46,612 nt of DNA, from the NCBI GenBank assembly GCA_022749995.1, contig JAKIWO010000005.1, positions 1-46,612 on the forward strand, written 5' to 3'. This DNA is from Thermoplasmata archaeon (GTDB lineage: Archaea > Thermoplasmatota > Thermoplasmata > Lutacidiplasmatales > UBA184). Under the pieces are notes generated by a model. That model saw nothing but the letters and a program-made list of their open reading frames with translations. It did no database searches and had not been told where the DNA came from. Each line of letters starts with the position of its first letter. Position 1 is the stretch's first letter. Position numbers and translations under genes: made by a program. Below, piece after piece: positions 1,578-33,242 of this stretch.

Positions 1578-4500
1578 CTAAGTCCAAGAACTCACCGCGA
1601 ACCAGCCCGACGCAGCGACGAACTGGAAGGTGTCGCTTTCGCCTGTGGTGCCGAGTAGACCCCCCCCCAGAATGAGGACCTCCCCGTCCGGGTCCAACAC
1701 ACTGCTGTAGGCAATCGCCGCGTCGCCTCGCGGTGGCACTACACCCGTTCCGTTTCCGGTGTCGCGATGGAACATGGTACCACTCCCGAGCCAGGTATCG
1801 CTGCAAGGGTACGTAACACTGGTAGAGCTGCATCCGAATCCTCCAAACAAAACGGTCTCACTATCGTAGCCATCCCATGCGGCCGCTAGGTCCCATCGGG
1901 CTGGGGTGATCCCAGAACTCCCAAGGCTCGTCCAGCTTCCACCGGAGTAGCTCCACTCGTCCGCCAGGGCGCTTCCGCTTGTTCCGTTCCAGCCTTCGAG
2001 GAGGAGGACTTCACTCAAAGTCGGCTGATACACCATGCCGGCACCGGCACGCCCTGCTGGACCGTGGGTGCCGGTGCTTACCTGCGTCCATGCGGTCCCG
2101 CTGAATCGCCAAGTGTCGGCCCGAGTCTGTAGGCAGCCGCCGAATGGCTGCGGTACGTCCGCACATCCTCCGAACAACAGGAGATATCCGTCATGGGCGT
2201 CGAAGACCATCATCGCGTCGGCCCGCGGGGGCGGATGGGTCGAGAAGTTGACGAGTGCCCAGACCCCGGCCGGGTATGATTGGTTGGAGAGTAGCTCCCA
2301 GGTGTCTGCCATGATACCGATCCCTCCAGCCGGCGGATGCTGGAACAAACCTCCAAACACGACGACGGCCCCCAGGGTCGGATCATACGCAACGGCCGAG
2401 TCGAACTCAGGGAAACAGAGTGGGGCCGGGCAGGGGGCGTGGCCGTACGGGGGCTTCACGATGAATGGTGCGGCAATCCAGGAGCCGTTGAAGTATTCCC
2501 AGGTCGTCGCGCCGACCGGAATGCAGAAGAGGATGCAGCCACCCACGAGCACCACCCGGTTGAGTGCCGCGTCATAAGTCATGCGTGAGCCCATGCCGGC
2601 GATGGGCCGAATTTGGGAGGGAACTGGATTCGTGATAGGGTTGGCGTAGCTGTAGGTGTACCACGTGCCGCCGGTGAAGGCCGAGACGTTGCTCACTGCC
2701 GTGCGGGGTGCCACGTCGCCCCCGACGAGCAACACATAGCCAGTTCCGTTATCGTACGTCAGGGCGGTCGCCACTACCGACTGGGGGCACGTCGGGCTGC
2801 AACCAGGAGCAGCCACCGAACTCCACGTATTGGAGCTGAACTCCCAGGTCGTGTGCACATACGGGGGAGGCTGGCTCCCAAAGCTCGGGAACATGACGAC
2901 GTAGTGGTCAACAGGATCGAACACCATGGGCCCCGCACCTTGCACGCCGGGAGAGCCGACCGGGTTCAGCTTCGTCCAGGTGTCGTTGTTATTGAACTTC
3001 CAAGTGTCAGTCGGCCCCCCACCGTAGAGCAGCAGAAATGCCGGGGAGGCTTGGGCGTCGTAGGCCATGCTGGCATTGACGCGAGGTTCGGGGGAGGATC
3101 TGAGAGAACCGAAAAGACTCCATGTCAGTGCAGTACTGTTCCATGCCCAGGTATCATTGAGAGTACCCGAGGAGCCAGCTCCGCCGAACAGTATCACGCC
3201 CGGGGCTTTGACGGAGGTATTGCTCGCCATCGCCGCTCCATAACGGGCGGAGGGGCATGACACGCTGCACGAGGCTTGATTCCAGCCCCGCACTACCACG
3301 CTAAAGTACCAAGTATCGGACAGCGGTTGACCGTTTGAGCCGATTCCCCCAAACAGCACTACAAATGCGCCGTCAAACGCCGCCGAAGCGTCGAACCGAG
3401 CTGGCGGACAGGCTCCCAAATTGCAAGCTCTGACCTTCGACGGGGCGAGGGCGGAATTGCTTAGCAGAGTCCATGCGGGCGTAGCCGCGGGCAATCCTAC
3501 GTCGCATGCTCCGCTGCCGTAGGCTGCACACTTTCCGAATGTCCAAGTCTCGTTGCTGGGACAGGTGATACCGCAGCCGCCGAACAACACGACCTCGCTG
3601 TCCGTCTGGTCGTAGGCCATCGCGGCCCCGAATCGCGCGGAAGGTACGGCCGGGTGCCAAAGTGTGTAGCCATCACTTGCAGACCCATTGACGTAGGTCA
3701 CTTCGGTGTCGTCCAACGACGACCCCGAAGGGCTGGTACCTCCGAACAGGATTTCGTTTAAGCAATCGTCAGAAGCCGTCACCGTCGCATCGAATCTTGG
3801 GGGAACCGAGATGGCGGTGGGGATCGAGGCGCTGGGGCCCCAATTAACGCCGGTGGAAGGACTCATCGCCCAGCCATCTCCATCGGCTCCGAGGCTTCCG
3901 GTGGACAGTCCCGCCGTGCCGCCGAACAGGCAGGCATTTCCGGTTGCATCTCCGAATAGCGCGCTATAGAACCGGGGGGACGGCGCGTTTCCCCCACAGC
4001 CGCTCTGTGATGGGCCCCCGCAGGTGCCACGTTGCGCCCAAGCTGCGCTCGGAGTGAACTTCCAGGTGTCGCCGTAGGCGTCGCCTGTAGGGCAACCCAA
4101 CGTCCCGTTGCCGCACCCACCAAACAGCAGACCGACCTGCGCGTGTCCCGACCCGCCGATATCGGCCAGAGTCGCTCCCCACCGGTCGTTGGGGGACTTC
4201 AACGTTGGGCATGGAGATTCGATGGTGTACGGGCCGCCACAGGCATGTCCGGAGATGCTCACCTGACTCCAGGCGCCCCCGGTAAACTCCCACGTGTCTC
4301 CCAGCGAGCAGTTCCCGGGCGTATCCCCGGTGACCCCGCAGCCGCCGAACAGTAGGACGGGCCCGGGCCCGCCGCCGCTTTCATCGAGACTGCTCATAGC
4401 CAGCGCATAGCGAGGCGACGGGGATTCGGTACTCGGGCAGCTGCTCTCCCCCGGATCCCCGCACTTGACTCCGTTGATGAGAATGCGCGACCATCCCCAG

Positions 4501-5231
4501 ACCCCGCCCACCGCGGAGAACTTCCAAGTGTCACCCAGAATGCCACCGGCCGGGCAGCCAGGCAAGCTCTCGACCCAGCCGGGGTTAGGGAATTCACAGC
4601 CCCCGAACATGACCAGGTAGCCGTCGGTCGCATCGTACGCGATTCCCATGTCGTGCCGCGCCAGGGGGCATCCGGGCTCCCCAGGACACCCTGACGGAGT
4701 GATATTGGTCCAGGCCGGAGCCAAACTCGAGGAGGAACTAGTCGAGATCGACCAAGTATCACCGAACACGACACCCCGCTGCGCGAAGGGCGTGCCGTTC
4801 GTTGGCTGGTTCGGGTCTGCGCTACTCGCTCCCCCGAACAGGATGGCGTCGTTCCCCGCACCATAGCTACCGTCGAGGTCCCAGCGGCTACCGTATCGAG
4901 CCGAGGGAGAGGAGAGGTAGGTGAACGGTGGGCTCGCGGCCGGGGTTGGATCGGCCGGGACGGCGCTCGAGCAGTTCAGGGACCCCCCGCTACTGTTCTG
5001 ACAGCTCATGGAGCTTCCACCGGCCGGCCCCTGACCGCTCGCGAGGGAACTCTCGGCTTCCTGGAGCAGCTCGGCTCCCGGGTTTGGGTTCCCTGCCGGC
5101 ACTTCAGACGGTTGGGCCGGATGGGCAGCCCCGAGCTGGAGCGGCGAGGAGAGCAGCATTGACAGAGTGCCCACCATGAGCGCGAGAATCGCTAAGCCGC
5201 GTCTCGTGGCTTTGGGTCGAGATCGAATCAT
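1578..5231 (-). CDS. Large secreted kelch-repeat protein (1217 aa)
   Basis: N-terminal signal-like hydrophobic segment (RRGLAILALMVGTLSMLLSSPLQLGAA) and many kelch repeats (xxxLFGGxGxxx...DTWxFxxxxW). Confidence 0.9.
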   Translation of the reverse strand: MIRSRPKATRRGLAILALMVGTLSMLLSSPLQLGAAHPAQPSEVPAGNPNPGAELLQEAESSLASGQGPAGGSSMSCQNSSGGSLNCSSAVPADPTPAASPPFTYLSSPSARYGSRWDLDGSYGAGNDAILFGGASSADPNQPTNGTPFAQRGVVFGDTWSISTSSSSSLAPAWTNITPSGCPGEPGCPLARHDMGIAYDATDGYLVMFGGCEFPNPGWVESLPGCPAGGILGDTWKFSAVGGVWGWSRILINGVKCGDPGESSCPSTESPSPRYALAMSSLDESGGGPGPVLLFGGCGVTGDTPGNCSLGDTWEFTGGAWSQVSISGHACGGPYTIESPCPTLKSPNDRWGATLADIGGSGHAQVGLLFGGCGNGTLGCPTGDAYGDTWKFTPSAAWAQRGTCGGPSQSGCGGNAPSPRFYSALFGDATGNACLFGGTAGLSTGSLGADGDGWAMSPSTGVNWGPSASIPTAISVPPRFDATVTASDDCLNEILFGGTSPSGSSLDDTEVTYVNGSASDGYTLWHPAVPSARFGAAMAYDQTDSEVVLFGGCGITCPSNETWTFGKCAAYGSGACDVGLPAATPAWTLLSNSALAPSKVRACNLGACPPARFDASAAFDGAFVVLFGGIGSNGQPLSDTWYFSVVVRGWNQASCSVSCPSARYGAAMASNTSVKAPGVILFGGAGSSGTLNDTWAWNSTALTWSLFGSLRSSPEPRVNASMAYDAQASPAFLLLYGGGPTDTWKFNNNDTWTKLNPVGSPGVQGAGPMVFDPVDHYVVMFPSFGSQPPPYVHTTWEFSSNTWSSVAAPGCSPTCPQSVVATALTYDNGTGYVLLVGGDVAPRTAVSNVSAFTGGTWYTYSYANPITNPVPSQIRPIAGMGSRMTYDAALNRVVLVGGCILFCIPVGATTWEYFNGSWIAAPFIVKPPYGHAPCPAPLCFPEFDSAVAYDPTLGAVVVFGGLFQHPPAGGIGIMADTWELLSNQSYPAGVWALVNFSTHPPPRADAMMVFDAHDGYLLLFGGCADVPQPFGGCLQTRADTWRFSGTAWTQVSTGTHGPAGRAGAGMVYQPTLSEVLLLEGWNGTSGSALADEWSYSGGSWTSLGSSGITPARWDLAAAWDGYDSETVLFGGFGCSSTSVTYPCSDTWLGSGTMFHRDTGNGTGVVPPRGDAAIAYSSVLDPDGEVLILGGGLLGTTGESDTFQFVAASGWFAVSSWT

Positions 5232-7013: not shown

Positions 7014-7820
7014 GTGGTCTCGCCCGGCTGGGTCCGCGTCATCGAAGGGGACGCCCGCACCCTCCCCGGGGTGGGGCCGGAGTCGGTCCAACTCGTCGTG
7101 ACCTCGCCACCGTACCCGATGATCCCCCAGTGGGACCCGCTCTTCGTCGAGCTGGGCGCGGGCGGTGACTTCGCCGCGATGCATGCGGAGCTCGAGCGGG
7201 CCTGGCGGGCCTGCTTCCGGGCGCTGTGCGAGGGGGGGATCCTGGCCGTGAACATCGGCGACGCGCTGCGCACCGGTCCCGAGGGGTTCCGGCTCTGGCC
7301 GAACCACGCCGAGGTGCTGCTGCGGGCGGAGGCGGCCGGGTTCCGCCCGCTCCCGTACCTGCTGTGGAAGAAGCCGATGAACCGGCCGAACGCCTACCTC
7401 GGTTCGGGTTTCCTCCCGCCCAACGCCTACGTCACGCTCGATTGCGAGTTCATCCTCCTATTCCGCAAAGGCGGGCCGCGCCGGTTTCCCCCCAAGGATC
7501 CCCGCCGCCGCTCCTCGGGGTACTCCCGGTCGGAGCGGGACCGCTGGTTCTCGCAGCTCTGGGGCGACCTGCGCGCCGCGCGGCAGGCGACCCCGGAAGG
7601 TGGCCGCAGCGCCGCGTTTCCGCCGGAGCTGCCTCGCCGGCTCGTGCGGATGTTCTCACTCGAGGGGGAGACGGTACTCGACCCGTTCGCCGGCACCGGT
7701 ACGACCCTCTGGGCCGCGGCCGAGCTCGGCCGCAATGCGATCGGTATCGAGCGGGACTCGGCGCTCGCCGCCCGCCTCAGGCGGCGGGCGGAGCGGGGGG
7801 AGCCGGCACCGGCGGATTGA
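7014..7820 (+). CDS. DNA methyltransferase, N4-cytosine/N6-adenine type
   Basis: Catalytic motif TSPPYP and SAM-binding motif DPFAGTGTT in beta-class order; GTG start at 7014 inside ORF 6513..7820. Confidence 0.87.
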   Translation: MVSPGWVRVIEGDARTLPGVGPESVQLVVTSPPYPMIPQWDPLFVELGAGGDFAAMHAELERAWRACFRALCEGGILAVNIGDALRTGPEGFRLWPNHAEVLLRAEAAGFRPLPYLLWKKPMNRPNAYLGSGFLPPNAYVTLDCEFILLFRKGGPRRFPPKDPRRRSSGYSRSERDRWFSQLWGDLRAARQATPEGGRSAAFPPELPRRLVRMFSLEGETVLDPFAGTGTTLWAAAELGRNAIGIERDSALAARLRRRAERGEPAPAD

Positions 7821-8322
7821 GCCGGTGCTCCTGCTCCTCCTGCACGGCCGCGCGAAGGTAGGCCAGGGCGCGGTCCGGCAGCCGGTCGAGGTGCAGCAGC
7901 AGGTAGTGAAGGTACACCCGCTCGGGACGATGGGAGGGCCCGGGAGGACGCACCTCTACCCGCGGTCCGTACTCCTCGAGCGCCCGCAGGGTGGCGTTGT
8001 GGTGCTCGTGCGCCGGCCCGTGGAGCTGTCGACCAATTTCGCCGACCAGCGGCGGGTAGACCCGACCGACCGGGTCGTACTCCGGGTCGGGGGACACGGC
8101 TGCGGCGGCCGCATGTTGGGCCTTCAGGTGGACGTACGGGTGGGTGGGGCGGCTCGGGTCCTGGAACGCCTCGAGCGGCTGGCCCGAGACCTCCTCGACG
8201 ATCGTCCGGAGCGACCAGGACTCTCGGCGGGCGGGGGCTGGTGGCGCCTCATCCTCCGGCGGAGTCCCCATCATCCGGTCGCCCCGCCGACGGCGGAGAT
8301 AAACCTGCGTTTCGACCTGCAA
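7777..8322 (-). CDS. Uncharacterized protein, distal gene of T4SS-like operon
   Basis: 181-aa ORF overlapping the upstream ATPase ORF in the operon direction; no recognised domain. Start uncertain (M at 8322, or MMGTPPEDE). Confidence 0.55.
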   Translation of the reverse strand: MQVETQVYLRRRRGDRMMGTPPEDEAPPAPARRESWSLRTIVEEVSGQPLEAFQDPSRPTHPYVHLKAQHAAAAAVSPDPEYDPVGRVYPPLVGEIGRQLHGPAHEHHNATLRALEEYGPRVEVRPPGPSHRPERVYLHYLLLHLDRLPDRALAYLRAAVQEEQEHRLNPPVPAPPAPPAA

Positions 8323-9967
8323 CGGCCTCCCCGGGCGGGCCGCGCAGCTGCGTGGTGAGGAACTCGTACTCGGGCGTGGAAGCGACCAACGCGATGGGCA
8401 GGTGTGCGGAGCCGAACCGGAGCAGCCCCTCGGAGTAGCCGGCCTCCCGCGGCAACCGGGCCCGGCCGAGCCAGTCGGCCTCGGCAGAGGAGAGGCCGTA
8501 GAACCGGCGTGCCTCCGACGATACCGGCGAGAGTCGAAGGAGTACGCTCACCCGGAGGTTCCGCAGCACCGAGCGGCCGGCCTCGGACCGCAGGAAGTCG
8601 TCCGGGCTCTGCGAGAGGAGCACCAGCCCGGCCGTGTCGTGGCGCACGCGGCGCACGAGGCCGTCCAAGAAGCGGGCCGTGGCCGGATGGCCGACGAGAA
8701 GGTGCGCCTCGTCCACGAGGAGCAGCTTGGGGCCGGCGCGGTGCGAGAGACGCTCGGCGATCGCCTCGAGGGCGTAGGCGAGGTGGAAGGCCCGATGACC
8801 CGGCGCGACGCCCGTCAGGTCCACCACGAGCGGGTCACCTGCGAGCTCCACCGTCGTCGGGCCGTCCAAGTACTGCAGTGATCCGGACCGGAACGTCTCG
8901 AGCAATCCGGGCAGGCGGGGAGCCTGGGCCGATTCGGCCGCTACTTCTCCCAGCAGATCGCGGAAGGTGGGCACGCCGCTGCGCTCGTACAACCGGTGGA
9001 GTGCGCGGTCGAGGAGGGCCGACTCTTCGTCCCGTAGGCTGGGGAACAGCGCCCCCAGCAGGGCGCCGATCCGCGCTGCCTTCTCCGACCGGTTTCCGCC
9101 AGCGCTCGCCGGGTCGAGCGGGTTGAGCCGACCGGCGCCGCCCGGACCCAGGTGCAGTACCTCGCCGCCGAGCGCTCGTGCCCAGTCGCCGAACTCCCCG
9201 AGCGGATCGAGCACGGCCACGGACAGGCCGGGGTTCATCCACCGTTCCCGCATCGCGAGCAGGCTCGCCGCGAAGCTCTTGCCGGCCCCGGTGGTGCCGA
9301 AGATCCCCCAGGAGTGACTTCCGTGCTTCCAACGGTTGAGCAGGACCGGCGCAGCATCCTCGAGCGCGAGCCCCAGGAGGACGCCCCCCGGCTCCAGTAC
9401 CGACTCGTCGACGAACGGCAGGAAGGCGGCCGCGGAGTCGCTCGGCAGCAGATGCCAGTATCCGGGCGGGCGGCGTCCCCCTCCGCCGGGGGAGCGGGGG
9501 GCGAGGGCGAGCGCGCTCTCGTAGCGCGGCGAGCGGGTACGGAAGCCGACCGCCTCGAGCCCCCGTTCGAGCGCGAGCCGGCGGCGTTCCGCCTCGGCGG
9601 TGCTCCGGCCATGGGCCGTGAAGCAGATCCCCACCCGGAAGAGCCGCTGCTCGCGGGCGGCGACCGACCGGCCGAGTTCGCGGGCGCTCTCGGCCTCGCG
9701 CTCGAGCTCGGCACGGCGCCCCTCGGGGGGCGGGAGGGAACCGCCGAGCTCCGCCTCGGCCCGGCTGGCCACTTCCTCCAACCGGCGCAGGGAGGGTGCG
9801 GGCGGCTCCGGCTGGAGCTCGAGCCGAAGGCCCCGTTCGCCGCTTCCCCCGAGGAGCCGGCCCAGGAAACCGAAGGCGACTCGGGGCGGCAGTCGGCTCA
9901 CGAGCAGCGGGGCCGTCGTGCCCGCGGGAGTGCGGATGGCGCCCGGGGATTCGGCCGCCTCACTCAT
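8249..9967 (-). CDS. VirB4/HerA-like T4SS ATPase
   Basis: Walker A GTTGAGKS, Walker B KLLLVDEAHLLV, sequence HDTAGLVLLSQSPDDFL typical of VirB4/TraE C-domain; ATG at 9967 overlaps the upstream gene stop. Confidence 0.85.
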   Translation of the reverse strand: MSEAAESPGAIRTPAGTTAPLLVSRLPPRVAFGFLGRLLGGSGERGLRLELQPEPPAPSLRRLEEVASRAEAELGGSLPPPEGRRAELEREAESARELGRSVAAREQRLFRVGICFTAHGRSTAEAERRRLALERGLEAVGFRTRSPRYESALALAPRSPGGGGRRPPGYWHLLPSDSAAAFLPFVDESVLEPGGVLLGLALEDAAPVLLNRWKHGSHSWGIFGTTGAGKSFAASLLAMRERWMNPGLSVAVLDPLGEFGDWARALGGEVLHLGPGGAGRLNPLDPASAGGNRSEKAARIGALLGALFPSLRDEESALLDRALHRLYERSGVPTFRDLLGEVAAESAQAPRLPGLLETFRSGSLQYLDGPTTVELAGDPLVVDLTGVAPGHRAFHLAYALEAIAERLSHRAGPKLLLVDEAHLLVGHPATARFLDGLVRRVRHDTAGLVLLSQSPDDFLRSEAGRSVLRNLRVSVLLRLSPVSSEARRFYGLSSAEADWLGRARLPREAGYSEGLLRFGSAHLPIALVASTPEYEFLTTQLRGPPGEAVAGRNAGLSPPSAGRPDDGDSAGG

Positions 9968-10317
9968 GATCGCCTCGCCGCCCGGCCGGCAGGTCCGGGC
10001 CGACCGAGCAGCGCTGCCAGCGCCGCGGGCACCACGAGGAGTACCGAGTGCTCCGGGCCGCGGTAGAGAACGTACAGCGCCGCCGCGGCACCGGCGCAGC
10101 CGAGGAGCCCTAGCAGCGGTGCGCTTGCCCGCCGGGACCCGGCGAACTCCATCCAACGGATCGCGAGCGAGGCGAAGACGAGCAGGACGAACGTCGCCGT
10201 GACGGCGCCGAAGGAGGGCCACCGCAGCGCGATGAGGGCGGACACGAGTGCCCCGGCGCTCGCCAACCCGAGCGGGTCGGGAAGCTCCTCCCCCGACCCA
10301 TCGCCGCCGGCGCTCAT
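9964..10317 (-). CDS. Small multi-TM membrane protein of T4SS-like operon
   Basis: 117 aa with several hydrophobic helices; 4-bp overlaps with both neighbours. Confidence 0.7.
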   Translation of the reverse strand: MSAGGDGSGEELPDPLGLASAGALVSALIALRWPSFGAVTATFVLLVFASLAIRWMEFAGSRRASAPLLGLLGCAGAAAALYVLYRGPEHSVLLVVPAALAALLGRPGPAGRAARRS

Positions 10318-11069
10318 CGAGGTTGTCCCCGGAGTGCACGCGCCGTCTCGGCGAGCTCTCCTCCGCGCAGACGTCGCGGAGAGAGTTCGAGGCGGGCGAG
10401 CTGCTCCTCCACCGCCGCCACCTGGCGGGCGAGTCGGGCCCGTCCGGCCGGTGACGGGCGTAGCTCCTCGAGGAGCAGCCGCACTCGGGTGCGCCGTCTC
10501 CGGCGCAGCAGGAGGAGGAGGAGCTCGCGGTAGGCTCGTGCGGCGGCTTGGAGGTCGGCGGAGTCACCGCTCCCACGTCCGGTCGGTGGGAGGAACGGTG
10601 CGCTACGGACCGGGACGCTGCCGACCTCGAGCCACAGGGGGCCGCCGAGGGAGTCGAGGAAACTCCGGTAGGCGGAGAACCGGCTCGATTGCTCGGGAGC
10701 CGGAAGATACGCGAGCGGCGCACCGGCCACTTCGAGGCCCGCGACGAGGCCTCCCGCTACGGGAAGGGCCGCCCCGGCCGCAGGGGCCGAGGAGCTTCCG
10801 CCCGCGGCGGTCGATCGCCAGCGCCAACGGAGGTAGTCGCTGCACCGCTCGTCGAGCGCCTTGCCGTCGGGCCGGTAGGTGGCGAGGAGGAATCCGCCCC
10901 CGACGAACGGGAGCCATACCACCGGGGAGCTGAGGGCGGCGGCGACCGCACCGAGTACGAGCGCCAGGAGGAACTTGAGCGCGTCCGTGACCGTCTCGAA
11001 CGGCCCAAACCGTGCGCGTCGCAGCATCGGCTCGGGCAGCCGGACCTCCACCGGGAGTGCGGCGCTCAC
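10314..11069 (-). CDS. PrgI-like T4SS membrane protein
   Basis: MSAALPVEVRLPEPM..RARFGPFETVTDALKFLLALVLGAVAAALSSPVVWLPFVGGGFLLATYRPDGKALDERCSDYLRWRWRS matches the PrgI-family layout (two TM, then 'G+.LDE....LR+R'). GTG start overlapping the previous stop. Confidence 0.68.
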   Translation of the reverse strand: MSAALPVEVRLPEPMLRRARFGPFETVTDALKFLLALVLGAVAAALSSPVVWLPFVGGGFLLATYRPDGKALDERCSDYLRWRWRSTAAGGSSSAPAAGAALPVAGGLVAGLEVAGAPLAYLPAPEQSSRFSAYRSFLDSLGGPLWLEVGSVPVRSAPFLPPTGRGSGDSADLQAAARAYRELLLLLLRRRRRTRVRLLLEELRPSPAGRARLARQVAAVEEQLARLELSPRRLRGGELAETARALRGQPR

Positions 11070-12184
11070 CGTCCCGCCCCACGCATCGGCGGGATCCGCG
11101 GGGAGGGGGCGGACCGCGGCTTCGCGGGGGCGAAGTGCGCGAGCAGGCGGGATCCGCCACTGCCGAGCAGCGAGCCGGCTAGGACCGGCAGGGCGAGCGC
11201 CGGACCGGCGGCACTGGCCCCGCGCACGGCCCCCGCCACCGGCGCCGCCCAGCTTCCTCCGCGGGCGACCGAGCCGAGCGGCCGGAGCACGCTCTCGAGG
11301 CCGCTGCCGGCGCTCGCCAATCCCCGCTGGATCCCTCCCGCCAGCACGCCGCCGGCACCGGGCATCCCGGCGGCGGTGAGCGACTGGCCAGCCAGCGATA
11401 GGAACGCGGGGGAGGCCAGCGCCGCGATCAGGTAGCCGAGCAGCAGCACGATCGAGCCGGAGCCGACGGCGAGCTCGAGCGGCACGACGAGGACGCACGG
11501 CAGGAAGGCGAGCTCGGCGAACCAGAGCCAGCCCCGCCGGGCGAGCGGGGCGAGTGCCGGCACGGGCCACAGGAGCGTGAAGACGGGCAGGAGCACGAGC
11601 AGCACGCCGAGCAGCGCGTTCCGGACGGCGATCGCCGCCACGAGCAGCAGGACGACGGAGAGGAGCACGAAGGCGAAGACGAACGCGAGGATGCCGTTGT
11701 CCCAGGAAAACGAGAGGAGACCGAAGCCCCCGAGGTTGGACCAGCGCTGCCAAGCGCCCCCGTCAAATCCGGCGACCACCGGATAGGTCGCCGAGGCGAG
11801 CCCAAAGAGCGCGCTCGCGACCGGCAGGGTGAAGTTGGCGAGCAGCGCCCCCACGACCAGGCGCGGGAACAGCCCTTGGAGCCGAGGGGCGATCGACGGA
11901 ATCGTGGCCCGCACCAGGTAGAGCAGCCCGACCGCGAGCACGACGAGGACCAGCGCCGGGTCGACCAGGGAGACCACCAGGTACTGGGAGAACGCCGCCG
12001 CGACCGCTAGGAACCCGCCGGCGCCGGAGGGGTCCGGAGGGAGCGACGGGAACAGCGCGGCCGCCTGCATCGACGGCACGAACAGGTTGTCGTACGTCGG
12101 TCCGATGACCGCCGCGAGCGCGGCGGTCAGGATGGCGAACAGCGCAAAGAGGATCGCCTGGATCGGGATCGAGGTCGGGTCCAT
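11066..12184 (-). CDS. VirB6/TrbL-like polytopic membrane protein
   Basis: 372 aa, multiple TM helices, Gly/Ala-rich C-terminal tail typical of TrbL; located between pilin-like and PrgI-like genes. Confidence 0.7.
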   Translation of the reverse strand: MDPTSIPIQAILFALFAILTAALAAVIGPTYDNLFVPSMQAAALFPSLPPDPSGAGGFLAVAAAFSQYLVVSLVDPALVLVVLAVGLLYLVRATIPSIAPRLQGLFPRLVVGALLANFTLPVASALFGLASATYPVVAGFDGGAWQRWSNLGGFGLLSFSWDNGILAFVFAFVLLSVVLLLVAAIAVRNALLGVLLVLLPVFTLLWPVPALAPLARRGWLWFAELAFLPCVLVVPLELAVGSGSIVLLLGYLIAALASPAFLSLAGQSLTAAGMPGAGGVLAGGIQRGLASAGSGLESVLRPLGSVARGGSWAAPVAGAVRGASAAGPALALPVLAGSLLGSGGSRLLAHFAPAKPRSAPSPRIPPMRGAGR

Positions 12185-12202
12185 CGCTGCCTTCGCCGCG
12201 TC

Positions 12203-12580
12203 CTAGACGCCGGTGACGACCCACTGCGCGAGTCCCCAGACCAGTCCGGTGACGGCGGCGGTGAACACGAGCGTACCGATCAGGGCGTCGCGTGCGCGCT
12301 CGCGAGCCTGCACCTTCTTCGAGACATCGTGGGAGAACCAGCTCAGCGCCACCCGAGCCCAGACGAGCGCGAGCAGGCCGCCGCCGGCGGCGGCCACCAG
12401 CGCGACGAGCCGTCCGATGGCGGCCGTGAAGTTCCCCTCGACCGAGGTCGCCCGAAGGTGCGCGACCGGTGCGGCCTCGGCCGGCGCCAGCGGAGCCACC
12501 GGCATCGGGGGTAGGAGGAGGAGCAGCCCCAGCAGAGCCAGTCCCACGCTCCTCAGGAGGCGCGCGGGTCCGGGCCTCAC
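12203..12580 (-). CDS. VirB2/TrbC-like pilin-type membrane protein
   Basis: Signal-like N-terminus (LLRSVGLALLGLLLLLPPMPVAPLAPAEA) followed by two TM helices separated by a short basic loop (SHDVSKKVQARERARDALIG); GTG start overlaps the upstream stop. Confidence 0.65.
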   Translation of the reverse strand: MRPGPARLLRSVGLALLGLLLLLPPMPVAPLAPAEAAPVAHLRATSVEGNFTAAIGRLVALVAAAGGGLLALVWARVALSWFSHDVSKKVQARERARDALIGTLVFTAAVTGLVWGLAQWVVTGV

Positions 12581-14841
12581 GGCTCCGCCTCCCCGCGCTC
12601 CGGGCGCGGCCGGGCACCAATCTCCCCGCGCTCGCGCCAGTGGTAGGTCGTGGGTTCCTCCGGCTCGGTGACACTCTCGATACGACCGAGCGCGATCCAG
12701 CGGCGGAGCGCCTGTCGGGTCGTCTCGGGATCGATCCCCTCCTCCTCGGCGAGGAGGAGCAGCGTGTCCTCGTCCAGACCCTCCGCGTCGCGCACCAGGC
12801 GTCGCAAGGTCGGCAGCGCACCCCGCGGTTCCGGGACCGTCGGCTTCGCGCGGCTCGGGAGCCGGGAACGGAACAGCCAGAGCGTACCGAGGACGAGACC
12901 GGCCGGAAGCAGCACCCAAGCGAGGCCGGTGCCGCCAGCGGAAGCGGCGGGGGTTGCGTTGGCGTCTCCGGCCCGCGGAGGTCCGGACCCCACTCCGCCC
13001 CCGGGAGCGATGGTCAGCGTGAGGCTGCTCTCGTTGCGGAATCCGAGGGCATCGGTGACGTCGAACTGGACGAGGAGGAAGCCGGAGGGAGCCGGGGGCG
13101 CCGTCCAGTCACCGGGACCCGGCAGCGAGGCGTTTCCGGCGGTCCCTGTACCGTCGGAGAGCCGCAGCGAGTACCGGTAGGGGAGCACCCCGCCCGCGAT
13201 CGTGAAGCTCAGGGTGAGTGGAGTGCCGGAGGTGGGCGAGGTCGACGCCAGGATGGCCGAGGCCTCGAGCGGCGCGAGCACCCGAAGCGTCAGGTTGGAG
13301 CTCACCGAGTCCCCGGCGCCGTCGACGAGGGTCACGACGAACAGCGCGGCTCCGGCCGAGGCGAGCGTTCCATTCCACGCGAACACTCCTCCCGAGGAGA
13401 GGCTGCCGGACCGGGCCGCTGCGGTGGAGATCCGCGCGGTGGTCCCGATCGACCAGTTGAGCGGAGGGGTGCCCCCTCCGGTGAGACCGACGACCTCGAC
13501 CGAGCCCCCGACCTCGCTGACGCTCGGAGTCAGGTTCGCGAGGAGGAACGGCGCGCTGTGCACGCGCGCCAGCGGCAGCGTCTCGCTCACGCCCACCCCG
13601 AGGGCATCGGTGACCGTCAACGACAGCCACAGCGGTGCGGCGATCGACGGGACCACCGCTTCGGTCCAGTTGCCGGGCCCGGCGGAGGTGAACGTGAACG
13701 TCGAGCCGGAGGGGACGGAACTTCCGGTCACTGCGAAAGGCCCCACCCCGCCGGCAAGCGCGAGGTGGAACGGCAGCGGGCGGTCCACATCGCCTCCCGC
13801 GGCGCCCACCACGCCCAGCGTTACCTGAACCGCCGCTGCGACAGGGAACTCTCGGTCGACCACGACCAGCCCTCCCAGGCGGTCGCTGACCTCGAGCTGG
13901 AGCCCGAGCTCCCTCGCGGTCGGGGCAGGGACCGTCCAACTCGGTCCGGTCCCCGCATCGCCGGCGCTGTCGTTCCAGAGATACGTGTACGGCGGGAATC
14001 CCCCTTCGACGAGCGCGCCCACCGCGAAGGGGGCCCCGAGCTCGGGACCGGCCGATTGCGGGACCAGCTCGGCCGCGAGCGCGCTCGCTACCAGTACGGC
14101 CGAGTTCACCTGGGCGGTGACCCGCTCCCCCAGCGGGTCGCTGACACTGACGCTGGGCAGGTACGTCCCGAGCCCGTACCGGTGCACCACACTGAACCCT
14201 CCCGCACGGGGCAGCGTGAGCGGGGTGCGGTTACCGTCACCGAAATCGAACCCGAGCTGGTAGGGTGGCTCACCGCCGGAGAGGTTGCCGGAGCAGCGGA
14301 CGGCGGCTCCGGGGACGGCGGGGGTGTTCCCCGCCGACCAGTCGGAGAGGAACAAGGCCGGGATCGTGGCGATGCTCGCCTGCGCTTCGGTGCCGAAGGA
14401 GACGTTGTTGGCAGGGCAGACGACGGAGCCTTCGACCGTGGCGCTCAGCTCGACGGTGCCGCTCACGCCGGGGAACGCCGAGAAGACCACCGAGGCGCCG
14501 GTGGGGGAGAGGAGCGTCCCGATCGGCTGGGCGAGCACGGACAGCTCCCACACGACCACGGGCGTCTCGACGGCGCACCCGGGGACCGAGGAGCCGACCC
14601 ACAGTGCGAACGAGCCGTTCTGCCCGGCGGCGAGCGTGGCCGCCGCCGGCACGATCTCGACGGAGGCGAACCCGAGGGCGGGCACCCGGTCGCCCTCGCC
14701 GGCGACGGGAGCGAGGCGTTCGCTCGGGTGGAAGCCGCCGCCTCCGAACAGCAGGAGCGGCAGGAGGAGAGATCCCAGCAGTCCCACCCATAGCAGCGGC
14801 AAGGGCGAGCGCATCGCCCGTCGGCCCGGCATCGAAACCAC
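12577..14841 (-). CDS. Surface protein with PKD/Ig-like repeats, single TM and cytosolic winged-helix-like domain
   Basis: Signal peptide (SPLPLLWVGLLGSLLLPLLLFGG), repeated beta-sandwich motifs (GGEPPYQLGFDFGDGN, GGFPPYTYLWNDSAG, GGVLPYRYSLRLSDG), TM (GLAWVLLPAGLVLGTLWLF), C-terminal helical HTH-like segment (DEDTLLLLAEEEGIDPETTRQALRRWIALGRIESV). Alternative start 14814. Confidence 0.85.
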   Translation of the reverse strand: MVSMPGRRAMRSPLPLLWVGLLGSLLLPLLLFGGGGFHPSERLAPVAGEGDRVPALGFASVEIVPAAATLAAGQNGSFALWVGSSVPGCAVETPVVVWELSVLAQPIGTLLSPTGASVVFSAFPGVSGTVELSATVEGSVVCPANNVSFGTEAQASIATIPALFLSDWSAGNTPAVPGAAVRCSGNLSGGEPPYQLGFDFGDGNRTPLTLPRAGGFSVVHRYGLGTYLPSVSVSDPLGERVTAQVNSAVLVASALAAELVPQSAGPELGAPFAVGALVEGGFPPYTYLWNDSAGDAGTGPSWTVPAPTARELGLQLEVSDRLGGLVVVDREFPVAAAVQVTLGVVGAAGGDVDRPLPFHLALAGGVGPFAVTGSSVPSGSTFTFTSAGPGNWTEAVVPSIAAPLWLSLTVTDALGVGVSETLPLARVHSAPFLLANLTPSVSEVGGSVEVVGLTGGGTPPLNWSIGTTARISTAAARSGSLSSGGVFAWNGTLASAGAALFVVTLVDGAGDSVSSNLTLRVLAPLEASAILASTSPTSGTPLTLSFTIAGGVLPYRYSLRLSDGTGTAGNASLPGPGDWTAPPAPSGFLLVQFDVTDALGFRNESSLTLTIAPGGGVGSGPPRAGDANATPAASAGGTGLAWVLLPAGLVLGTLWLFRSRLPSRAKPTVPEPRGALPTLRRLVRDAEGLDEDTLLLLAEEEGIDPETTRQALRRWIALGRIESVTEPEEPTTYHWRERGEIGARPRPERGEAEP

Positions 14842-29181: not shown

Positions 29182-29528
29182 AAACTTACGGCTCGGGCCG
29201 GAGATTCGACGGGGCGACAGTGAACTTCGCTCCCCCTGACCTTCAGTGAGCACGGGGCCGATAAGACAACGCTGGTACCGTGGTGCGGGGAGAGACGCGT
29301 CACCTCCAGATCTGAACCCCGGCGAGAGAGGCGATGCGGGGGAGCGGACTGGGCCGCCGGAGCGAAGACCATGGAGGAAGAGGGCTCGAGGGCCGGCAGG
29401 GTCGCTCCGTTCTGGGCCGGGAGGGAGGTCCCCCCGTCGACGGGGCGGGCCGGGAGCCCTCGCGGATCGGCCCGGCCAACGCGCGCGGAATAAGCTCATC
29501 CCTGCGGCAACGCTCCGAAGCACAGCGC

Positions 29529-33242
<3,714 letters not shown>

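What the first reader, a model, noticed from the sequence alone, without database searches (positions are those of the whole stretch)
8249..12580. Chromosomal archaeal T4SS-like apparatus: VirB2-, VirB6-, PrgI- and VirB4-like genes in one overlapping operon
Five consecutive minus-strand genes encode a signal-peptide plus 2-TM pilin-like protein, a TrbL/VirB6-like polytopic protein, a PrgI-like protein, a small membrane protein and a VirB4/HerA ATPase; most junctions are 4-bp overlaps. This is the minimal membrane/pilus/motor set of a type IV secretion or DNA-transfer machine. No relaxase, VirD4 coupling protein, integrase or replication gene is visible, and the operon follows housekeeping genes (RidA, fibrillarin). 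That argues for a domesticated system such as DNA import (Ced/Ted-like in Crenarchaeota) or protein/pilus export. Its composition in this lineage may be undescribed.
Basis: partly seen in the sequence, partly recalled or inferred. Interest (0 to 1): 0.88.

Follow-up and report, generated by a model that had tools for sequence, protein, structure and literature searches.

The report
Chromosomal DNA-transfer-type secretion operon, Thermoplasmata
A set of adjacent genes that resembles the motor, channel and pilus of a bacterial DNA-transfer machine is a fixed part of the chromosome in several major groups of acid-loving and soil archaea, including cultured Thermoplasma and Ferroplasma, and is a strong but untested candidate for how these organisms exchange DNA.

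Summary
The five minus-strand genes at 8249-12580 exist and are under purifying selection. Four of the five junctions from the Ig/PKD gene to virB4 are 4-bp overlaps. The operon also includes the upstream gene, an Ig/PKD surface protein with one membrane helix and a winged-helix-like tail. The 'PrgI-like' gene is PrgI (VirB3) fused to the split-off N-terminal part of VirB4.

VirB4 is present in 25/25 genomes of the family (soil Thermoplasmata, probably Lutacidiplasmatales), at a conserved chromosomal site. No relaxase was found in any of them, and no coupling protein or integrase lies beside the operon.

Profile searches show the same VirB2-VirB6-PrgI-VirB4 cassette in other families of the class: single-copy pilin in 71/77 genomes and 19/19 genera of the Thermoplasma/Ferroplasma family, and present in a third family. 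In Aciduliprofundum it appears to lie on an integrated element.

Best reading: a conjugation-type secretion system domesticated in Thermoplasmata, probably for DNA exchange, as in Ced/Ted. It has a VirB3 homologue, which the Ced literature calls absent from archaea. NurA, proposed to supply ssDNA to Ced/Ted, was not found in this family. Cargo and direction are untested. Published mentions found are annotation-level only.

The parts
12577..14841 (-). Surface protein: Ig/PKD-like ectodomain, one C-terminal TM helix, cytoplasmic winged-helix-like domain (about 745-754 aa, start codon uncertain). First gene of the operon.
   Evidence: 4-bp overlap with virB2. SprB 3.3e-6 and PamR-like PKD 2.5e-8 hits. 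Co-conserved in front of virB2 in family genomes that could be checked, mostly 500-1825 aa. A. boonei has the same layout with Ig domains at 2.3e-29. Winged helix is read from the aligned C-termini, not from a profile hit.
12203..12580 (-). VirB2/CedA1/TedC-like pilin: signal peptide plus two TM helices with a basic loop (FSHDVSKKVQARERARDALIG)
   Evidence: Alignments A2 and A13. Homologues pass the Pfam T4SS_pilin PF18895 cut-off in A. boonei (34.9 bits), L184 (33.7) and L181 (27.0). AF2 helical hairpin, pLDDT 72. dN/dS about 0.15.
11066..12184 (-). VirB6/TrbL-like polytopic membrane protein (372 aa, about 6-7 TM)
   Evidence: hhalign 98% (E 1.9e-13) to the VirB6-like gene of the paralogous PrgI-VirB4 cassette. 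Homologues in A. boonei, f19 and f31 loci between virB2 and prgI/virB4. No Pfam hit. AF2 model poor.
10314..11069 (-). PrgI (VirB3)-TrsD fusion: 2-TM PrgI domain (about 1-95) plus VirB4 N-terminal subdomain (about 105-247)
   Evidence: hhalign to Patescibacteria PrgI 99.4%, to TrsD-like protein 99.7%, to the N-terminal 303 residues of fused PrgI-VirB4 99.9%. A. boonei counterpart matches VirB4 profile NF045975 at positions 126-273.
9964..10317 (-). Small 3-4 TM protein, fast evolving
   Evidence: Positional counterparts in family genomes and in A. boonei. Sequence poorly conserved, dN/dS about 0.5.
8249..9967 (-). VirB4 ATPase (572 aa, soluble, lacking its N-terminal subdomain)
   Evidence: NF045971 CD1110 VirB4 8.6e-38, VirB4_CagE 7.2e-16. 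PDB 4ag5 VirB4 1.3e-19. Invariant Walker A (G224, G227, G229, K230) and Walker B (D419, E420).
7777..8274 (-). Conserved soluble protein of unknown function overlapping virB4 by 26 bp
   Evidence: Homologues behind virB4 in many family genomes. No confident Pfam or NCBIfam family.

Best explanation
This is a domesticated, chromosomal type IV secretion system of the MPF-FATA (monoderm) kind, inherited in the Thermoplasmata, that most likely moves DNA between neighbouring cells of the same population. SHOWN by sequence: VirB2-type pilin, PrgI/VirB3 plus VirB4 N-terminal protein, VirB4 ATPase and an Ig/PKD surface protein in one operon; fixed chromosomal position; purifying selection; no relaxase found. 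SHOWN LESS FIRMLY: the VirB6 assignment. INFERRED: the Ig/PKD protein and pilus hold cells together; signal-peptidase-processed pilins are extracted and polymerised on the VirB6/PrgI platform by the VirB4 ATPase into a thin pilus; single-stranded chromosomal DNA passes through VirB6 into, or out of, the cell and is recombined, as proposed for Ced/Ted. The ssDNA source is unknown, since neither relaxase nor NurA was found in this family. Confidence in 'domesticated T4SS' alone is about 0.9; in DNA exchange as its function about 0.55.
For: VirB4 profiles. Pilin homologues over the Pfam cut-off. PrgI/TrsD by profile-profile comparison. VirB4 in 25/25 family genomes, and the operon syntenic wherever the contig allows. 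Pilin single-copy in 71/77 genomes and 19/19 genera of the Thermoplasma/Ferroplasma family, with VirB6 and VirB4 adjacent in nearly all sampled loci. Different but locally fixed contexts in three families. VirB4 tree: family monophyletic 100/100 and most genera recovered. Purifying selection like fibrillarin. No relaxase in 26 genomes; no coupling protein or integrase beside the operon. The same minimal VirB2/VirB6/VirB4 set is the Ced DNA-import system and its Ted relative (PMC9905601). Ferroplasma populations recombine at high rates (PMC2704941).
Against: No substrate evidence of any kind. NurA, the proposed ssDNA source for Ced/Ted, was not detected in any of the 25 family genomes, and HerA has no NurA-like neighbour in the three genomes read. 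In Aciduliprofundum the same cassette lies near an integrase, with a coupling protein about 40 kb away, so at least one relative looks like a mobile element. Structure search gave no match.
Confidence: 0.55

Rival explanations
1. A domesticated T4SS used for protein secretion or as an adhesion/cell-contact pilus (host, prey or biofilm attachment), not for DNA.
For: The operon leads with a large Ig/PKD surface protein, up to 1825 aa in relatives. A. boonei carries five VirB2-like proteins, several with large ectodomains, which suggests decorated surface fibres. No relaxase or coupling protein. Patescibacterial T4SS with similar gene order are thought co-opted for other functions (PMC12102498).
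Against: No effector-like gene is linked in a conserved way. The same minimal set imports DNA in Ced. Ced-type systems also lack a relaxase.
Confidence: 0.25
2. A DNA-uptake machine for free environmental DNA (natural transformation), like the ComB T4SS of Helicobacter.
For: Chromosomal T4SS without relaxase or coupling protein; soil and biofilm habitats.
Against: Competence genes were not searched for here, and nothing separates this from cell-to-cell import by sequence.
Confidence: 0.1
3. An integrated or decaying conjugative element rather than a cellular system.
For: A. boonei has the operon within 7 kb of a phage-type integrase and about 40 kb from a VirD4-type protein; Guglielmini et al. 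reported an ICE in A. boonei (PMC3158045). Five family genomes carry additional PrgI-VirB4 fusion cassettes with TraG-like ATPases.
Against: In the window's family VirB4 is in 25/25 genomes with conserved neighbours; purifying selection; no integrase near. In f19 the pilin is single-copy in 19/19 genera.
Confidence: 0.07

Closest known systems
Ced (Sulfolobales) and Ted (Thermoproteales) DNA-import systems
   Same: Chromosomal, relaxase-less set of VirB2-like pilin, VirB6-like channel and VirB4-type ATPase; Lutacidiplasmatales pilins have a signal peptide like TedC, while Thermoplasma pilins lack an obvious one, as described for CedA1.
   Different: VirB4 of the window scores with the CD1110/FATA VirB4 models far better than with CedB or CedD. 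A PrgI/VirB3 homologue is present, stated absent in archaea by PMC11868833. Ig/PKD surface protein in the operon. No NurA found in this family. Different phylum.
Patescibacteria T4SS (MPF-FATA-derived, mostly relaxase-less)
   Same: VirB2 genes, PrgI, TrsD-like protein and VirB4 in the same order; no relaxase in most; VirB4 homologous at 1e-36 to 1e-43.
   Different: PrgI and TrsD are separate proteins there and fused here; VirB2 arrays rather than a single pilin; bacteria.
Conjugative MPF-FATA systems of Firmicutes/Mollicutes (CD1110, Mbov_0397 families)
   Same: Best curated VirB4 models; PrgI and TrsD domains.
   Different: No relaxase or coupling protein here; VirB4 split into two genes; not on a mobile element.
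A. boonei putative ICE T4SS
   Same: Same operon order: Ig protein, VirB2-like genes, VirB6, PrgI-TrsD, small TM, VirB4. VirB4 groups with the window's family (100/99).
   Different: Five VirB2-like genes, integrase nearby, coupling protein elsewhere, patchy in its family.

Membership tests
Type IV secretion system (MPF-FATA type) | VirB4 ATPase of the FATA/CD1110 group | tested here: met
   NF045971 8.6e-38 for P0001 and 6.7e-62 for A. boonei. The curated full-length cut-off (325 bits) is not reached; the protein is shorter than the model because its N-terminal part is a separate gene.
Type IV secretion system (MPF-FATA type) | PrgI/VirB3 homologue | tested here: met
   hhalign 99.4% to Patescibacteria PrgI.
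Type IV secretion system (MPF-FATA type) | VirB6 polytopic channel protein | tested here: inconclusive
   98% to the paralogous VirB6-like protein and fixed position, but no Pfam hit and a poor AF2 model.
Type IV secretion system (MPF-FATA type) | VirB2-type pilin (extra to the monoderm MPF-FATA prototype, typical of T4SS pili) | tested here: met
   Orthologues over the PF18895 cut-off; the window protein itself only E 1.4, linked by alignments A2 and A13.
Conjugative element (ICE or plasmid) | Relaxase | tested here: not met
   PF03432 absent in 26 genomes. Other MOB families not searched.
Conjugative element (ICE or plasmid) | VirD4/TraG coupling protein | tested here: not met
   PF02534 and PF12696 absent in the window's genome (87% complete) and in all six genus members. 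13 other family members have PF12696 matches elsewhere.
Conjugative element (ICE or plasmid) | Integrase beside the system | tested here: not met
   Only one integrase-family gene in the genome, on another contig.
Ced/Ted DNA-import system | CedB/TedB-clade ATPase | tested here: not met
   The window's VirB4 matches CedD only weakly (1.1e-6), far below CD1110; CedB matches in relatives are also weak. Ted proteins were not compared directly.
Ced/Ted DNA-import system | Chromosomal VirB2/VirB6/VirB4 set without relaxase | tested here: met
Ced/Ted DNA-import system | Imports chromosomal DNA; Ced induced by DNA damage | not testable with these tools
   Needs genetics or transcriptomics.

The most novel reading that the evidence does not exclude
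A further lineage of domesticated archaeal DNA-exchange machines, fixed in several families of the Thermoplasmata (Thermoplasma/Ferroplasma family, Lutacidiplasmatales and a third family), which uses a PrgI subunit and, in part of the class, a split VirB4, works without NurA or relaxase, and underlies the extensive recombination seen in natural Ferroplasma populations.
Probability: 0.42. Interest if true: 0.85.

Novelty: new variant of a known kind. Interest (0 to 1): 0.72.

Why it matters
DNA exchange by domesticated T4SS in archaea is described in the papers read here only for Crenarchaea (Ced, Ted). If this operon does the same, it extends the phenomenon to another phylum and gives a candidate machine for the high recombination seen in Ferroplasma, whose genomes were reported to lack pili genes (PMC3750248). 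The pilin orthologues in cultured Thermoplasma, Ferroplasma and Cuniculiplasma are single-copy, so one knockout could test it. The split VirB4 (PrgI-TrsD plus VirB4) parallels the proposed CedB/CedD division of the VirB4 N-terminus. The failure to detect NurA challenges the proposed HerA-NurA source of the transferred ssDNA, at least in this family.

Tried and rejected
Single-sequence scan of genome contigs with VirB4 found nothing; the alignment scan worked. HMM searches of PDB with the pilin, VirB6 and PrgI alignments gave no relevant hit. Foldseek of the AF2 pilin and VirB6 models against PDB gave nothing significant; the VirB6 model is too poor to use. Profile-profile comparison of the pilin with Patescibacteria pilins was weak (prob 6%, E 0.006), and a direct HMM test did not separate it from shuffled sequences, so the pilin claim rests on Thermoplasmata orthologues that pass the PF18895 cut-off. 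Protein comparison failed on two alignments; I ran hhalign in the Python box instead. Att-site repeats at tRNA-Arg in A. boonei: none of 16 bp or more found. A HerA assignment for the ATPase was rejected: HerA is a separate gene elsewhere in the genome. An ATPase-like hit near virB4 in G004 is an ABC transporter.
Full report
WHAT IS THERE. The window's minus strand carries ridA, fibrillarin, an Ig/PKD membrane-protein gene (12577-14841), then virB2-like (12203-12580), virB6-like (11066-12184), prgI-like (10314-11069), a small TM gene (9964-10317), virB4 (8249-9967) and a conserved unknown (7777-8274). Junctions from the Ig/PKD gene to virB4 are 4-bp overlaps except virB2/virB6 (18-bp gap). A DNA methylase (N6_N4_Mtase, 7014-7820, + strand) converges on the end of the operon.

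IDENTITY OF THE PARTS. VirB4: NF045971 (CD1110 VirB4) 8.6e-38 and PDB 4ag5 VirB4 1.3e-19; Walker motifs are invariant in 21 sequences. Pilin: signal peptide, two helices and a strongly conserved basic loop. The window protein alone scores only E 1.4 against T4SS_pilin, but orthologues pass the curated cut-off in A. boonei (34.9 bits), an Aciduliprofundum relative (33.7) and family f31 (27.0). The AF2 model is a helical hairpin with pLDDT 72 and no significant PDB match. PrgI: profile-profile comparison gives 99.4% to Patescibacteria PrgI over the TM part, 99.7% to the TrsD-like protein over the soluble part and 99.9% to the N-terminus of fused PrgI-VirB4 proteins. In A. boonei the same gene hits VirB4 profile NF045975 at positions 126-273 while its VirB4 starts at 275, so VirB4 is split into two genes. 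VirB6: the weakest assignment, resting on 98% hhalign to a paralogous VirB6-like protein, topology and fixed position; no Pfam family, and the AF2 model is poor. The Ig/PKD protein has an ectodomain, one TM helix and a winged-helix-like tail, shared in layout with A. boonei.

DISTRIBUTION AND INHERITANCE. VirB4 is in 25 of 25 genomes of the same family and in none of the three sampled order-mates from two other families. The order Ig/PKD-B2-B6-PrgI-small-B4 is kept wherever the contig allows; genera g1, g5 and g6 keep ridA/fibrillarin upstream, while g2, g3, g4 and g7 lack these neighbours and have an Ig/PKD protein of about 1740-1825 aa. By my count from the class-wide PrgI search, 77 of 95 family genomes match; several of the rest have the pilin, which suggests assembly gaps. 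Record titles identify the relatives as Thermoplasmata MAGs; soil origin and Lutacidiplasmatales are my inference from isolate names of the kind used in PMC9287336, which does not mention secretion or conjugation. dN/dS is about 0.2 for VirB4 and VirB6 and 0.15 for VirB2, like fibrillarin.

WIDER IN THE CLASS. The pilin profile found single homologues across family f19: 71 of 77 genomes, 34 of 35 high-quality genomes, 19 of 19 genera. Among 17 loci fetched from f15, f19 and f31, VirB4 is always present. VirB6 is labelled next to it in 16; in Cuniculiplasma the gene between pilin and VirB4 is a membrane protein below threshold. The pilin ORF is labelled in 16; in the other (L191) the genome search places it just outside my ORF size limit. 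PrgI is a separate gene in some f19 members; in Thermoplasma and Ferroplasma VirB4 is longer and may carry it fused, which I did not test by profile. Flanks are locally conserved: f19 has conserved blocks of small metabolic genes, f31 a gene that reads as topoisomerase VI subunit B (names from reading the sequences, not from profiles). f8 and f22 members sampled have no pilin. In Aciduliprofundum the cassette is patchy and lies near an integrase (PF00589 5.5e-8), with a T4CP about 40 kb away.

PHYLOGENY. The family's VirB4s are monophyletic (100/100) and group with Aciduliprofundum/DHVE2 (100/99). In the wider tree f1, f15 and f31 group with 90/86 support, while f19 is a separate long-branched clade, so a single origin for the whole class is not proven. 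PrgI-fused VirB4 paralogues in five family genomes (G012, G013, G017, G022, G023) fall with bacterial sequences and, where the contig is long enough, sit beside TraG-like ATPases: a second, conjugation-like system distinct from the window's operon.

MISSING PARTS. No relaxase PF03432 in 26 genomes. PF02534 is absent in 23 of 25 family genomes, and PF12696 is absent in all six genus members, though 13 other family members have matches elsewhere. NurA PF09376 is absent in all 25, while a HerA-like ATPase is present elsewhere in 12 of the 13 family genomes searched (all but G003, with weaker matches only). In the three genomes read its neighbours are not NurA-like, whereas A. boonei has a NurA-like gene beside HerA. 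The only integrase in the window's genome is on another contig. The genome is 87% complete, so absences lean on the relatives.

KNOWN OR NEW. Ced and Ted are chromosomal VirB2/VirB6/VirB4 systems in Crenarchaea, Ced a demonstrated DNA importer (PMC9905601). A 2025 study states that VirB3 and VirB8 homologues are absent in archaea and that CedB and CedD together cover a VirB4 N-terminus (PMC11868833); thaumarchaeal ICEs, however, were reported with VirB3 (PMC6563490). Patescibacteria T4SS share VirB2, PrgI, TrsD and VirB4 (PMC12102498). For Thermoplasmata I found only annotation-level mentions of VirB4 (Cuniculiplasma, PMC5155288; E-plasma, PMC10354927) and the A. boonei ICE (PMC3158045). The library holds open-access papers only, so prior art could be missed. 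Ferroplasma populations recombine heavily (PMC2704941) although pili genes were reported missing (PMC3750248).

VERDICT. A real, conserved, domesticated T4SS, about 0.9. DNA exchange as its function, about 0.55, by analogy with Ced/Ted and by gene content; nothing here shows the cargo or the direction.

Noticed in passing
window 7014-7820 (+); L055:6018-8576: A DNA methylase (N6_N4_Mtase) converges on the end of the operon in the window and in genera g1, g5 and g6; A. boonei also has a methylase-domain gene convergent with virB4 (27% identity over 92% of the window protein). Possibly coincidence, possibly marking of self DNA.
   Followed up: partly
L058-L065 (G012, G013, G017, G022, G023): A second T4SS-like cassette with PrgI-VirB4 fusion, VirB6 and a 1000-1150 aa TraG/TraD-like ATPase, grouping with bacterial VirB4s; looks like conjugative elements in the same lineage.
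   Followed up: partly
L055, L152-L154 (A. boonei region about 966-1029 kb): T4SS operon near an integrase, a tRNA-Arg and CRISPR-Cas-like genes, with a VirD4-type protein about 40 kb away; five VirB2-like proteins, several with large ectodomains.
   Followed up: partly
L181, L182, L183, L191 (family f31): The T4SS operon is followed by a second HerA/VirB4-like ATPase of about 680 aa and lies divergent from a gene that reads as topoisomerase VI subunit B in all four genomes.
   Followed up: no
L184:9262-19106: A DHVE2-group relative has a 2293-aa Ig/PKD protein in front of its VirB2 gene, and a 589-aa protein with a VirB2-like C-terminus.
   Followed up: no
window 1578-5231 and 29334-33242: A large secreted Kelch-like repeat protein, and a 1237-1302-aa protein that reads like a serine/threonine kinase with a long C-terminal part.
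   Followed up: no
L192 (G000:C48), L194, L195: HerA homologues in the window's family have no NurA-like neighbour, unlike A. boonei (L193), although herA and nurA are usually neighbours in thermophilic archaea.
   Followed up: partly
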